A DNA stretch of 64,000 bases, from contig CAJFQC010000001.1 of the NCBI GenBank assembly GCA_904418845.1, forward strand, positions 62,001 through 126,000, read 5' to 3'. The notes beneath the pieces were generated by a model. That model worked only from the letters and a program-made list of their open reading frames with translations. It did no database searches and was not told where the DNA came from. The stretch is from an uncultured Ruminococcus sp. (GTDB taxonomy: Bacteria > Bacillota > Clostridia > Lachnospirales > Lachnospiraceae). Position 1 is the stretch's first letter, and each line of letters begins with the position of its first letter. The translations under genes and the position numbers were made by a program. Positions 57,056 through 62,399 of this stretch are shown here, one piece after another.

Positions 57056-60000
57056 GTGACAGTTTTGAAAAATAAGATCAAACGTTTTGCCAAAGGAGAT
57101 TTTCACATTCCTCAGCCGGAGATCATTTTTCCGGAGACGCGGATCATCATGCGCGTGGGAGAGGGAGAAAAATATAGAGGAAGCTTTTCGCTTAAAAATC
57201 AGGGGGAGGGGACCATACGCGGTCTTGTCTATCCCTCTTCTTATCGTATCCATTGTGACGAGCAGGGCTTTGACGGCAATCCGGTGAATATCTATTATAC
57301 ATATGACGGAAGCGGCCTGCTTCCGGGACATGTAGAACACGGAAAGTTTACGATCGTCTGCAACGGCGGTGAGTATGACGTGGCGTTCACAGCAGTTATC
57401 GAGAAACCGTATGTAATGACGAGCTACGGGAAGATCCAGAGTCTTGACGACTTCAAAAAGCTTTCCTTCCGCGACGCTGCCGAGGCGGTGAAATTGTTTC
57501 GGTCCAGAGAGTTCTATGAGATTTTAAAATATGAGGACAGAAGAATACAGGCGCTCTATGACAATATGCGCCGGTGGGAGTTAGACCAGCAGGCGCTTGA
57601 GGAGTTCCTCGTGGGCTGCAAGCAGAAAGAAAAGATTTTCCTGACATTAGAGGAGGAGAGCCGGGCGTTCATCTCTCTTGAGGAAGCCCGCAAGGAGACC
57701 TTTACGATCAAGAAAAACACATGGGGATATCTGGAGATGGATGTGCGCACGGAAGGGGATTTTCTTACCGTGGAACATACCAGGGTAACTACGGAAGAAT
57801 TTATTGGCAATTCCTATCGGCTGGAATATTTCCTTAATGTGAATAAGCTTCACGCGGGAAGCAACTTCGGCCGTGTCATCGTGGAGTCGCCTTATGAGAC
57901 GCTAAGCTATGAGGTTGTGGTCGAGAAGGATATCAAAAGAGACGAGGACAGGCGCGCCAATGACAGAGAGTTCGCAGGGATACTACGCAACTATCTGAAA
58001 TATGAAGGCGGCAGGATGGAGCTTGCTGACTGGGTGGAAGAGGCGGTACGCAGAATTAATCATCTAAGAGACATGGATCCGTCCAATGAGTTTTATCTTT
58101 TGTTCCATGCGCATATCTGTCTGATCGGAAAGCGTATGGAGGAGGCAAAGTGGCTTCTTGAATCGTACAATTATAATCGGTTTGCAATAGGTAAGGATGT
58201 GGAGCTCAGTTCTTATTATCTCTATCTGACAACGATGTTGTCCAGCGATACCATCGGTCAGCGAAAGGTTGCAGAAGAATTGTCAAAGATGTTCATGAAG
58301 CATCCGGACAGCTGGAAAGTACTCTGTATGCTTGTGGAGGTAGATTCTGAGTATAAGATATACAGTGAGAGGCTGCGTGTACTGGAAAAGCAGTTCTATG
58401 AGGAAAAGTCCCATAGTATCTGGTTTTATTTTCAGGCTTTCAGGTGTTTCCGGGACAAGAGTTCTTCCCTGAAGAAACTGGGCGTGTTTGAAGTCCGTGT
58501 CCTGCTTTTTGCGGTAAAGCATAAGCTTATGACAAGGGAACTTGCCCTTTACACGGCGAACCTGGCAAGCCAGATCAAAACATATGACAGACATCTTTAT
58601 GACGTCCTTGCCCTTTCTTATAAAATGTATAATGAGTCCATGATACTTACATCAATCTGTACACTCCTGATCAAAGGAAACTGTGTGGAAAACAGCTATT
58701 TCAGATGGTATGAAAAAGCGGTGGAGTCAGAACTTAAGATCGCCCAGCTCTACGAATATTATATGGCTGCGCTCAGGCCCGAACAGTTCCATAAGGCACT
58801 GCCAAGGTCAGTATACCTGTATTTTATGCACGGGAATTCGCTTGACTACCGTAAATGCGCATTCCTGTATTCGAATCTGATCACCTATGAAGATGAGTCC
58901 AGCGAGATCTATGCACATTACAGAGACGAGATGGAGGCGTTTGCGTGGAACCAGCTGGACAGGAGAAATGTGGACGAGCAGCTCCGTATTGTGTATAAAC
59001 GTTTCGTGACAGAGAGCGCAATGAATCCGGACCGAGTAAAAGCGCTGTATGATGTGTGCCATGCGTACTGGATTACGACAAAGGTTCCGAATATGAAGTT
59101 TATCCATGTGATCGCAGAGGACGGGACGATCACTCAGAAGGCTGCCTGCATGGAAGGCGGAGCGCGCGTATTTCTGTACGCCAAGACAGACCGGCTTGTG
59201 TGGGAGGCGCGTGACGGACGCCATTATACAGATTCCATCCCCTATGAGAGTAAACGGCTTTTCTACGAGCTGCGCTACATGGATATGTGCAGAAAATATA
59301 TCAACGGCCTGCGCCGCAGCCGCGAAGAGGAAGCAGCGGAAGAGCTGACTCTGGAGAAGGTGCGAAAAAGAGGGCTGGAGAATTACACGGAAGAAGAGAT
59401 GCTTGGGCTGTGCAGCAAGACGATCCGGGAGAACAATTATGAGAATGATGATTTCCTGACATATGTTTGTTTTGAACTGTTCAAAAATCAGCAGTATGAC
59501 AAGGTTATTCTGACATACCTTGCGAACTATTACTGTGGGGCGACCCCGGATATGAAATATCTCTGGAGAGAGGCAAGAGATTACGAGGTACACACCCATA
59601 AACTGGCGGAGAGAATCCTCACCCAGATGCTTTTCTCGGAAGAATTGTTCCAGGAGGCGCAGATCTTCGAGCAGTATTATGCGGAAGGCGCGTATTTCCG
59701 TCTCCAACAGGCATACCTTGCCTATGTGTCAAGAGAGTATGTGGTGGAGGAAAGAAGGATCGCGCGCAGCGTCATCGACATCATCTGCCGGGAGTATGAA
59801 AAAGATGAGGAGACTATTGACATCTGTAAGATCGCGGTGCTGAAATATTATTCAGACAGAGAGTACAACGCTCAGACCCGCAGGACGCTGAAAAAATTTC
59901 TTCAGGAGCTGTGCGGCAGACAGATCTATTTTCCGTTCTTCCTCTCGTATGAGAAAGAGTGGCTTGTTGAGCTTCAGCTATGGGATAAGACGCTGATCGA

Positions 60001-60358
60001 GTACAAAGGGCAGAAGGGCAGCAGGGTCATGCTCTATTACCAGCTTCAAAAGGGCGGACAGGAACTGGCAGACTATTCGACGGAGGTGCTGACGCCGATG
60101 TACGAGAATATTTATGTGAAGAAATTCGTGCTTTTTACGAATGAAAAACTGAAGTATTATTTTAAAGAAACGATCGACGGCAACTCTTACCGCAGTGATA
60201 AAGAGACATGTGTGAGAGAACCGAAATCAGACGAACAGGGCAGATATGGACGGCTTAACGACATCTTAAAAGAGAGCAGCGGGAAAAAACGCAGAAAGAA
60301 GATGCAGGAGTATGCGCTGGAGGATACAGTGGCAGCCCATATGTTCACGCAGGAATAA
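57056..60358 (+). CDS. Large (about 1100 aa) DUF5717-like protein
   Basis: Uninterrupted ORF; N-terminal Ig-like beta regions (GEGEKYRGSFSLKNQGEGTIRGLVYPSSYRIHCDEQGFDG; second at TFTIKKNTWGYLEMDV), then long helical repeat-like region. GTG 57056 or TTG 57065 start. Family name from memory. Confidence 0.75.
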   Translation: MTVLKNKIKRFAKGDFHIPQPEIIFPETRIIMRVGEGEKYRGSFSLKNQGEGTIRGLVYPSSYRIHCDEQGFDGNPVNIYYTYDGSGLLPGHVEHGKFTIVCNGGEYDVAFTAVIEKPYVMTSYGKIQSLDDFKKLSFRDAAEAVKLFRSREFYEILKYEDRRIQALYDNMRRWELDQQALEEFLVGCKQKEKIFLTLEEESRAFISLEEARKETFTIKKNTWGYLEMDVRTEGDFLTVEHTRVTTEEFIGNSYRLEYFLNVNKLHAGSNFGRVIVESPYETLSYEVVVEKDIKRDEDRRANDREFAGILRNYLKYEGGRMELADWVEEAVRRINHLRDMDPSNEFYLLFHAHICLIGKRMEEAKWLLESYNYNRFAIGKDVELSSYYLYLTTMLSSDTIGQRKVAEELSKMFMKHPDSWKVLCMLVEVDSEYKIYSERLRVLEKQFYEEKSHSIWFYFQAFRCFRDKSSSLKKLGVFEVRVLLFAVKHKLMTRELALYTANLASQIKTYDRHLYDVLALSYKMYNESMILTSICTLLIKGNCVENSYFRWYEKAVESELKIAQLYEYYMAALRPEQFHKALPRSVYLYFMHGNSLDYRKCAFLYSNLITYEDESSEIYAHYRDEMEAFAWNQLDRRNVDEQLRIVYKRFVTESAMNPDRVKALYDVCHAYWITTKVPNMKFIHVIAEDGTITQKAACMEGGARVFLYAKTDRLVWEARDGRHYTDSIPYESKRLFYELRYMDMCRKYINGLRRSREEEAAEELTLEKVRKRGLENYTEEEMLGLCSKTIRENNYENDDFLTYVCFELFKNQQYDKVILTYLANYYCGATPDMKYLWREARDYEVHTHKLAERILTQMLFSEELFQEAQIFEQYYAEGAYFRLQQAYLAYVSREYVVEERRIARSVIDIICREYEKDEETIDICKIAVLKYYSDREYNAQTRRTLKKFLQELCGRQIYFPFFLSYEKEWLVELQLWDKTLIEYKGQKGSRVMLYYQLQKGGQELADYSTEVLTPMYENIYVKKFVLFTNEKLKYYFKETIDGNSYRSDKETCVREPKSDEQGRYGRLNDILKESSGKKRRKKMQEYALEDTVAAHMFTQE

Positions 60359-61657: not shown

Positions 61658-62399
61658 CAGACATGCGGCACATCCTTATGAGATCACAAGAATACACAGC
61701 AGGATCTTTACGATCGAAGAGCTGTGTTATTATCTGTGCAACAATCTCTATCTGATCGATTATACGATCATGAATGAACAGCTCTGCGACTGGCTTGCCG
61801 AGGAACTGGGAATGGAAATTCTGGCGGCAGAGTTAAGAGACGTGCTGCGTCTGAGGGGATCTGTGGAAAAGTTTGTGCTGACCATCCTGAAATCCTCCAG
61901 GATATACCGGGAGCCGGAGATGATCCGTATTCAGAATGTGCTGGAGCATCTGAAAAACCAGAAGGATATCGAACGCCAGAAATTTAAAGGCGACAACCTG
62001 TTGGAAAGCGGGGAGCTGGAGGAGGCTATCCTTGTGTATCAGGCAATCTTAAACGGCGAGAAAGACGAGACAGTGGACGACAAGTTCTACGGCAGAATCT
62101 ACGCCGGGCTGGGCGCTGCCTACGGACGGCTTTTCCTCTATCAGGAGTCTGCGCGTATGTATGACAGAGCTTACCAGATGTGCGAAGATAAGGCGCTGAT
62201 CAAGCCGTATCTCTACGCCTCCTATAAATATATGTCGTTGGAGGAATACCACATCCTCATCACGAAGAATGAAGAGTACATGGTGGTCAATGCGCAGATG
62301 CGCAGGGAGATTGACGAGATAAGAAAAAACATGCCGGAAGAGGTAGACCCTGGAGCGCTTGAGAACTGGAAAAGGCAGCATCGCAGGAGCCACACATAA
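61632..62399 (+). CDS. TPR-like helical protein, third gene of the module
   Basis: KGDNLLESGELEEAILVYQAILNG...YGRIYAGLGAAYGRLFLYQESARMYDRAYQM; overlaps the end of the preceding CDS. Confidence 0.75.
   Translation: MGNLILCHDRHAAHPYEITRIHSRIFTIEELCYYLCNNLYLIDYTIMNEQLCDWLAEELGMEILAAELRDVLRLRGSVEKFVLTILKSSRIYREPEMIRIQNVLEHLKNQKDIERQKFKGDNLLESGELEEAILVYQAILNGEKDETVDDKFYGRIYAGLGAAYGRLFLYQESARMYDRAYQMCEDKALIKPYLYASYKYMSLEEYHILITKNEEYMVVNAQMRREIDEIRKNMPEEVDPGALENWKRQHRRSHT

What the first reader, a model, noticed from the sequence alone, without database searches (positions are those of the whole stretch)
57056..62399. Three-gene module: giant Ig/helical-repeat protein, actin/Hsp70-like protein and TPR protein, with its own promoter
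Seen: three same-strand, tightly packed genes (gaps of about 15 nt, then a 26-nt overlap) behind a TTGCAA-18-TATAAT promoter. Gene 1 is about 1100 aa with two beta-rich Ig-like segments and a long helical repeat region. Gene 2 has the segment order of an actin/Hsp70-type ATPase, with a plausible late glycine motif (VFLTGEGFENEW) but a degenerate phosphate-1 region. Gene 3 is a TPR-like protein. Knowledge: the first two look like uncharacterised DUF5717/DUF5716 families found in Lachnospiraceae (recall, not searched). Inference: this resembles a client-scaffold + Hsp70-like switch + TPR co-chaperone assembly of unknown function. It could act in envelope maintenance or proteostasis, given the adjacent MoxR-DUF58-transglutaminase genes.
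Basis: partly seen in the sequence, partly recalled or inferred. Interest (0 to 1): 0.82.

Follow-up and report, generated by a model that had tools for sequence, protein, structure and literature searches.

The report
Pseudo-Hsp70 module of Lachnospiraceae gut bacteria
Almost every bacterium of the large gut family Lachnospiraceae carries this uncharacterised three-gene operon, which appears to be the stripped-down remnant of an eight-gene, multi-Hsp70 chaperone operon of its sister families; the one Hsp70-like protein that was kept has lost the machinery for using ATP.

Summary
In detail: three tightly packed genes (DUF5717 giant, DUF5716, TPR-like) sit behind a sigma-70-type promoter that is conserved in five genera. 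Gene 2 is an Hsp70 by fold: AF2 pLDDT 88.7, and the top 50 PDB matches are all Hsp70s. The P-loop, catalytic Lys and Glu, and nearly all of the IIB lobe (adenine cap and GrpE site) are gone, and it has no lid.

The new finding is comparative. The DUF5716 gene occurs in 293 of 299 sampled genomes of the window's family and was not found outside the order. In other families of the order (Defluviitalea, Anaeropeptidivorans, 'Epulonipiscium' MAGs) the locus is an eight-gene operon A-H: DUF5717 in two parts, three intact Hsp70s (one fused to vWA), a GrpE-domain protein, a pseudo-Hsp70 and a TPR protein. Gene 1 = A+B, gene 2 = E, gene 3 = H. The sister lineage of Lachnospiraceae still has all eight. 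Lachnospiraceae lost the operon's ATP-hydrolysing Hsp70s and GrpE and kept scaffold, pseudo-Hsp70 and TPR adaptor. I infer an ATP-independent, Ssz1-like client-binding or adaptor complex. Its client is unknown. No literature was found on it.

The parts
56947..56976 (+). Promoter: TTGCAA, 18-nt spacer, TATAAT, with TG before the -10 hexamer
   Evidence: Consensus scan; same element with 17/18-nt spacer upstream of gene 1 in four other genera
57065..60358 (+). Gene 1 (DUF5717, 1097 aa from TTG; the listed ORF starts at GTG 57056): scaffold of two N-terminal Ig/ASH-like beta domains, alpha-solenoid, central beta domain, second solenoid, C-terminal beta domain. Orthologue of A+B of the eight-gene operon
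   Evidence: Pfam; AF2 pLDDT 86.3, pTM 0.48; Foldseek: ASH/MSP-like Ig tandems of ciliary central pair and TPR solenoids; DUF5717_N spans A and B
60374..61657 (+). Gene 2 (DUF5716, 427 aa): lidless pseudo-Hsp70 with degenerate nucleotide-binding domain lacking lobe IIB (residues 1 to about 296) plus SBD-beta-like domain (about 297-415). Orthologue of E
   Evidence: AF2 pLDDT 88.7; Foldseek top 50 all Hsp70; hhalign to the active Hsp70 F, 99.7%, E 2.7e-25; motif and lobe loss; tree
61629..62399 (+). Gene 3 (256 aa): conserved N-terminal helical domain of about 110 aa, one or two TPR-like repeats, basic C-terminal tail. Shortened orthologue of H
   Evidence: Weak TPR_12 match; full-length alignment with H, which has five TPRs

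Best explanation
The operon encodes a cytoplasmic, ATP-independent pseudo-chaperone complex. Shown by computation: it is the reduced form, kept across nearly all Lachnospiraceae, of an eight-gene operon (A-B-C-D-E-F-G-H) with three Hsp70s whose ATPase motifs are intact (C, F, and G with a vWA domain), a GrpE-domain protein (D), a pseudo-Hsp70 (E), a two-part scaffold (A+B) and a TPR protein (H). In the Lachnospiraceae ancestor C, D, F and G were lost, A and B are one gene, and E went on to lose lobe IIB. Inferred: gene 1 is a long scaffold. Gene 2 is locked in one state and uses its SBD-beta-like domain as a nucleotide-independent peptide or partner clamp. Gene 3 is a helical adaptor. Together they hold or position one or a few specific cytoplasmic clients or assembly intermediates, possibly handing them to the cell's DnaK, much as Ssz1, which cannot hydrolyse ATP, supports Ssb in yeast. 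Losing the GrpE-like subunit fits, since a non-cycling Hsp70 needs no exchange factor. Client and process are unknown.
For: Fold. Sequence homology independent of the model: g2 vs F, E 2.7e-25 along the full length; g2 vs E, 2.9e-57. Dead ATPase: canonical P1/P2 motifs in C 47/48 and 48/48, F 51/51, G 40/40, E 0/72; catalytic Lys70 equivalent kept in all aligned C/F/G but in no E or g2; lobe IIB 76-113 aa in C/E/F/G and DnaK examples but 10-20 aa in g2 examples. Descent: g2 groups with E of the sister lineage L036 (100), inside E, with F as sister; DnaK tree places L036's genome, with the full operon, as sister to Lachnospiraceae (100/98) and Defluviitalea outside. Loss: a second, D-type GrpE in 8/8 operon carriers and 0/24 of the window's family; the own genome shows one DnaK-type Hsp70. 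Same chromosomal slot: shared aminotransferase and valS neighbours. Constraint: 293/299 genomes; DUF5717 found in all 12 tested DUF5716 carriers of that family; pN/pS about 0.09-0.45. Ssz1 parallel: PMC7083937.
Against: No complex was predicted or measured; operon order is the only evidence that the three proteins interact. SBD-beta-like topology does not prove peptide binding. Nucleotide binding without hydrolysis is not excluded: an Asp in P1 and one glycine of the adenosine motif remain. No J-domain partner was seen. Transfer to DnaK is pure inference. The species tree rests on one gene (DnaK).
Confidence: 0.55

Rival explanations
1. Gene 2 is a working ATP-driven Hsp70-like switch with gene 3 as TPR co-chaperone and gene 1 as client or scaffold.
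For: Hsp70 fold; TPR-type partner; relatives of the operon carry Hsp70s with intact motifs.
Against: No g2 keeps Lys70, Thr199 or the GGGT loop; lobe IIB is deleted in all g2 examined; the D-type GrpE is absent.
Confidence: 0.05
2. The module is a co-chaperone or targeting adaptor for the housekeeping DnaK: gene 2 and gene 3 recruit DnaK-DnaJ-GrpE to clients presented by gene 1, so the ATP step is outsourced rather than dispensed with.
For: Family genomes tested have a standard DnaK and one standard GrpE above cut-off; Ssz1-Ssb is a working precedent.
Against: No J-domain or known DnaK-binding motif was found in the trio; no interaction data.
Confidence: 0.25
3. A conflict/defence or cell-suicide system like the chaperone-bearing GTPase systems of Kaur et al. 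2020 (HSP70 + GrpE + FNIII/TPR themes).
For: The eight-gene operon shares HSP70, GrpE, TPR and Ig-like parts with those themes, and vWA with related ones (PMC7159879).
Against: No GTPase, GAP1 domain or effector in A-H; no PADLOC match for the trio; near-universal, usually single-copy and syntenic in a whole family, unlike patchy defence loci.
Confidence: 0.05
4. A decaying relic without function.
For: Stepwise loss of motifs, lobe and four genes.
Against: Present in 98% of genera sampled, intact ORFs, purifying selection and conserved promoter.
Confidence: 0.02
5. A sporulation or envelope-maintenance module.
For: MoxR-DUF58-transglutaminase genes lie upstream in the window.
Against: At least ten family genomes without SpoIVA keep DUF5716; the MoxR cluster is not a conserved neighbour; no transmembrane segment in the three proteins by a hydropathy scan.
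Confidence: 0.07

Closest known systems
Ssz1 of the yeast ribosome-associated complex (Zuo1-Ssz1)
   Same: Hsp70 fold, SBD-beta without lid, no ATP hydrolysis, no need for an exchange factor (PMC7083937); among the Foldseek hits (RAC entries 7x3k, 6sr6, 5mb9)
   Different: Ssz1 still binds ATP, pairs with a J-protein and sits at the ribosome; gene 2 lost lobe IIB, has a giant Ig/solenoid partner gene and no J-domain partner in the operon
DnaK / canonical bacterial Hsp70 (PF00012)
   Same: Two-domain architecture; profile homology to the operon's motif-intact Hsp70 F
   Different: No ATPase motifs, no IIB, no lid; not recognised by the Pfam HSP70 model
DUF5716 / DUF5717 (PF18980, PF18983, PF18984)
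   Same: Direct members
   Different: Pfam gives no function; neither the fold nor the link to the eight-gene Hsp70 operon was found in the literature held
GAP1-N2 GTPase-centric systems with HSP70/GrpE (Kaur et al. 2020, PMC7159879)
   Same: Operons combining HSP70, a second reduced HSP70, GrpE, TPR and FNIII-type proteins, with vWA proteins in related themes
   Different: No GTPase, GAP1 or effector; four Hsp70 paralogues; vertical, family-wide inheritance

Membership tests
DUF5717 / DUF5716 (Pfam) | Match above curated cut-off | tested here: met
   706 and 338 bits (cut-off 25), 340 bits (cut-off 34.7)
Hsp70 superfamily (fold) | Actin-type NBD followed by SBD-beta | tested here: met
   AF2 pLDDT 88.7; top 50 PDB matches all Hsp70; hhalign to F 99.7%
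Hsp70 chaperone (ATP-cycling) | Phosphate-1, phosphate-2 motifs, catalytic Lys and Glu | tested here: not met
   Lost in all 19 g2 aligned
Hsp70 chaperone (ATP-cycling) | Lobe IIB (adenine cap, GrpE contact) | tested here: not met
   10-20 aa in g2 examples versus 81 aa in DnaK; segment between motifs 53-68 aa in all g2 versus 119-172 in the others
Hsp70 chaperone (ATP-cycling) | SBD-alpha lid | tested here: not met
   Only a short tail after the last strand at residue 415; adenosine motif to C-terminus about 177 aa versus 308-319 in DnaK
Ssz1/RAC-type non-cycling Hsp70 | No hydrolysis residues, no lid, SBD-beta kept | tested here: met
   Sequence and model only; hydrolysis itself not assayed
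Ssz1/RAC-type non-cycling Hsp70 | J-domain partner | tested here: not met
   No J-domain among trio or A-H in Pfam scans
Ssz1/RAC-type non-cycling Hsp70 | Ribosome association | not testable with these tools
   Needs fractionation
Actin-like filament protein (ParM/MreB/FtsA) | Closest structural match in actin-like filament families | tested here: not met
   All of the top 50 PDB matches are Hsp70s
GAP1-N2 HSP70/GrpE conflict systems | GTPase and GAP1 components | tested here: not met
   None in A-H
TPR co-chaperone (gene 3) | TPR repeats | tested here: inconclusive
   Sub-threshold TPR_12 but full-length homology to H with five TPRs

The most novel reading that the evidence does not exclude
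A multi-Hsp70 assembly machine lost all its ATPases and became a core, nucleotide-independent pseudo-chaperone complex of a dominant gut family: a bacterial counterpart of the yeast Ssz1 complex that arose independently, serving a lineage-wide client not yet known.
Probability: 0.35. Interest if true: 0.85.

Novelty: new variant of a known kind. Interest (0 to 1): 0.74.

Why it matters
The module is a near-universal trait of Lachnospiraceae with no annotated function, so it probably serves something basic in one of the main human gut families. It also gives a clean natural series (motif-intact Hsp70 F, degenerate E, lobe-deleted gene 2) for asking what an Hsp70 still does after its ATP cycle is gone. 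The sister-family operon, with four Hsp70 paralogues, a GrpE-domain protein, a vWA fusion and an Ig/solenoid scaffold, is itself undescribed in the literature searched.

Tried and rejected
(1) Membrane partner: a coiled-coil/2-TM protein of about 400 aa (F6) often follows gene 3 or H, but it is absent from the window's genome and present in genomes without the module, so it is not a member. (2) Sporulation link: rejected. (3) Defence system: no PADLOC hit for the trio, only weak generic matches for F, G and H. (4) RNA element or tRNA around the module: none. (5) PDB sequence search with gene 2: only chance hits; fold and profile comparison were needed. (6) Apparent partial operon in L149: C and D were hidden by the ORF caller; A-B-C-D-E-F-G is there. 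L058's missing g2 in my ORF table is the same artefact (an antisense ORF was chosen); the Pfam match lies there. (7) Members outside the order: the class-wide search with an A-type profile gave, beyond the family, only three hits at E 0.003-0.007, read as noise, and the phylum sample with DUF5716_C gave none outside the family. (9) Literature on DUF5716/5717: one irrelevant paper; a search for transposon essentiality data in the family found nothing useful.
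Full report
What is there. The promoter is shared with four other genera although coding synonymous sites are near saturation (pS about 0.7-0.8), and gene 1 probably starts at TTG 57065. Pfam identifies gene 1 as DUF5717_N + DUF5717 and gene 2 as DUF5716_C; gene 3 shows only a sub-threshold TPR signal. 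None of the three has a transmembrane segment by a simple hydropathy scan.

Distribution. DUF5716_C is found in 293 of 299 sampled genomes of the window's own family (243 of 246 high-quality ones), nearly always once, and in none of the genomes outside that family in a sample of 399 from the phylum. Protein names place the family in Lachnospiraceae. DUF5717 is present in all 12 tested family genomes that have DUF5716 and absent from 5 of 6 that lack it; the sixth is a 68%-complete assembly. In 20 family loci read the gene order is gene 1, gene 2, gene 3 on one strand; one locus (L071) ends inside gene 2, and in L058 gene 2 is masked by an antisense ORF in my table but matched by Pfam. A class-wide search with a profile of the N-terminal part of gene 1 found nothing convincing outside the family in that sample.

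The ancestral operon. In other families of the same order DUF5716 matches come mostly in adjacent pairs. Reading those loci shows an eight-gene, same-strand operon: A (about 400 aa, N-terminal part of DUF5717_N), B (about 900 aa, rest of DUF5717_N plus DUF5717), C (559 aa, HSP70), D (about 630 aa, C-terminal GrpE), E (about 523 aa, DUF5716_C plus weak HSP70), F (547 aa, HSP70 plus weak DUF5716_C), G (692 aa, HSP70 plus vWA) and H (387 aa, five TPRs). A scan of named genomes gave 75 loci: 20 with the complete A-H order, the rest contiguous parts limited by contig or locus ends or by a split locus, plus a few disturbed by the ORF caller. Carriers include Defluviitalea phaphyphila Alg1, Anaeropeptidivorans aminofermentans (named through its G protein), 'Candidatus Epulonipiscium' MAGs and many Defluviitaleaceae MAGs.

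Orthology and direction. Gene 1 corresponds to A+B, gene 2 to E and gene 3 to H. In a tree of all Hsp70-type proteins, g2 joins E of locus L036 (support 100), that group joins the other E proteins (100), and F is their sister (100); C, F, G and DnaK are separate clades (some branches are long). The E/F split therefore predates Lachnospiraceae, so F must have been lost there. In a DnaK tree the genome of L036, which has A-H, is sister to Lachnospiraceae (100/98) and Defluviitalea lies further out, with several module-free families between. Flanking genes (an aminotransferase upstream, valyl-tRNA synthetase downstream) are shared by both operon types. The simplest reading is vertical descent, with loss of C, D, F and G and a single gene for A+B in the Lachnospiraceae ancestor, and complete loss of the operon in other families. 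GrpE counts agree: every one of eight operon carriers has a second, D-type GrpE; none of 24 genomes of the window's family does. The window's genome shows one DnaK-type Hsp70; its other listed match is an MreB-sized protein.

Gene 2 is a pseudo-Hsp70. The AF2 model (pLDDT 88.7, pTM 0.88) matches Hsp70s in all top 50 PDB hits, though overall TM-scores are modest (about 0.4-0.5), as expected for two domains in a different relative orientation plus missing parts. A profile of g2 alone aligns with the paralogue F over its full length (99.7%, E 2.7e-25). C, F and G keep canonical phosphate motifs (C 47/48 and 48/48, F 51/51, G 40/40), E in none of 72. The catalytic lysine (Lys70 of DnaK) is kept in every C, F and G aligned and in no E or g2. 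The step from E to g2 removes nearly all of lobe IIB: about 80 residues become 10-20, while E of the sister lineage still has it. IIB caps the adenine and is a GrpE contact (established knowledge), so its loss agrees with the loss of the GrpE-type gene. There is no lid.

Gene 1 and gene 3. The gene 1 model (pLDDT 86.3, pTM 0.48, so domain arrangement is unsure) has four beta modules and two alpha-solenoid stretches. PDB hits are Ig tandems of ciliary central-pair proteins and repeat solenoids of scaffolds such as those of the Ski and PAF complexes, all at low overall TM-score: a fold-type resemblance, not membership. Gene 3 shares with H the N-terminal helical domain, the first repeat region and the C-terminal tail, but lacks the later TPRs.

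How it probably works. Shown by computation: fold, motif loss, lobe loss, operon reduction, conservation, constraint. Inferred: the three proteins form a cytoplasmic complex in which gene 1 is the scaffold, gene 2 a fixed, nucleotide-independent clamp and gene 3 an adaptor; it holds or positions a specific client and may pass it to DnaK. Ssz1 is the best described parallel: it lacks the lid, does not hydrolyse ATP, needs no exchange factor and yet binds substrate through SBD-beta (PMC7083937). Differences are the deletion of IIB and the absence of a J-protein in the operon. Retention by at least ten genomes without SpoIVA argues against a sporulation role; lack of conserved MoxR neighbours argues against the envelope idea.

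Novelty. No paper in the library held discusses DUF5716 or DUF5717 as such. The nearest described operons are the HSP70/GrpE themes of GAP1-N2 systems (PMC7159879), which have a GTPase and GAP1 that are missing here.

Noticed in passing
[quoted passage not shown] The Hsp70s C and F are highly conserved (mean column identity 82 and 76%) while E and A are not (44 and 34%).
   Followed up: yes
L060:7654-8847 (-) and relatives: A coiled-coil protein with two transmembrane segments in the middle (about 400 aa, no Pfam match) follows gene 3 or H, in some genomes with valS beyond it, in both operon types; it is not confined to module carriers.
   Followed up: yes
L036:5340-7384 (-): In the sister lineage of Lachnospiraceae the G protein appears as two ORFs (494 and 198 aa), so it may be split there or the assembly may have a frameshift.
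   Followed up: no
G427, G489, G496: Three fairly complete genomes assigned to the family lack both DUF5716 and DUF5717; they could be true losses or gaps in fragmented assemblies.
   Followed up: partly
window:52633-56892 (+): A MoxR-DUF58-transglutaminase cluster lies directly upstream of the module in this genome but is not a conserved neighbour elsewhere.
   Followed up: partly
Upstream of gene 1 in L062, L063 and L072: A shared stretch AAAAATGCAACG[TCA]AAG follows the promoter in three genera; it might be an operator or a leader element.
   Followed up: no
P0301 (710 aa) and P0088 (555 aa, with PF17802): A few database proteins with DUF5716_C are longer than usual; P0088 carries an extra PF17802 domain. 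They could be real fusions or chimeric assemblies.
   Followed up: no
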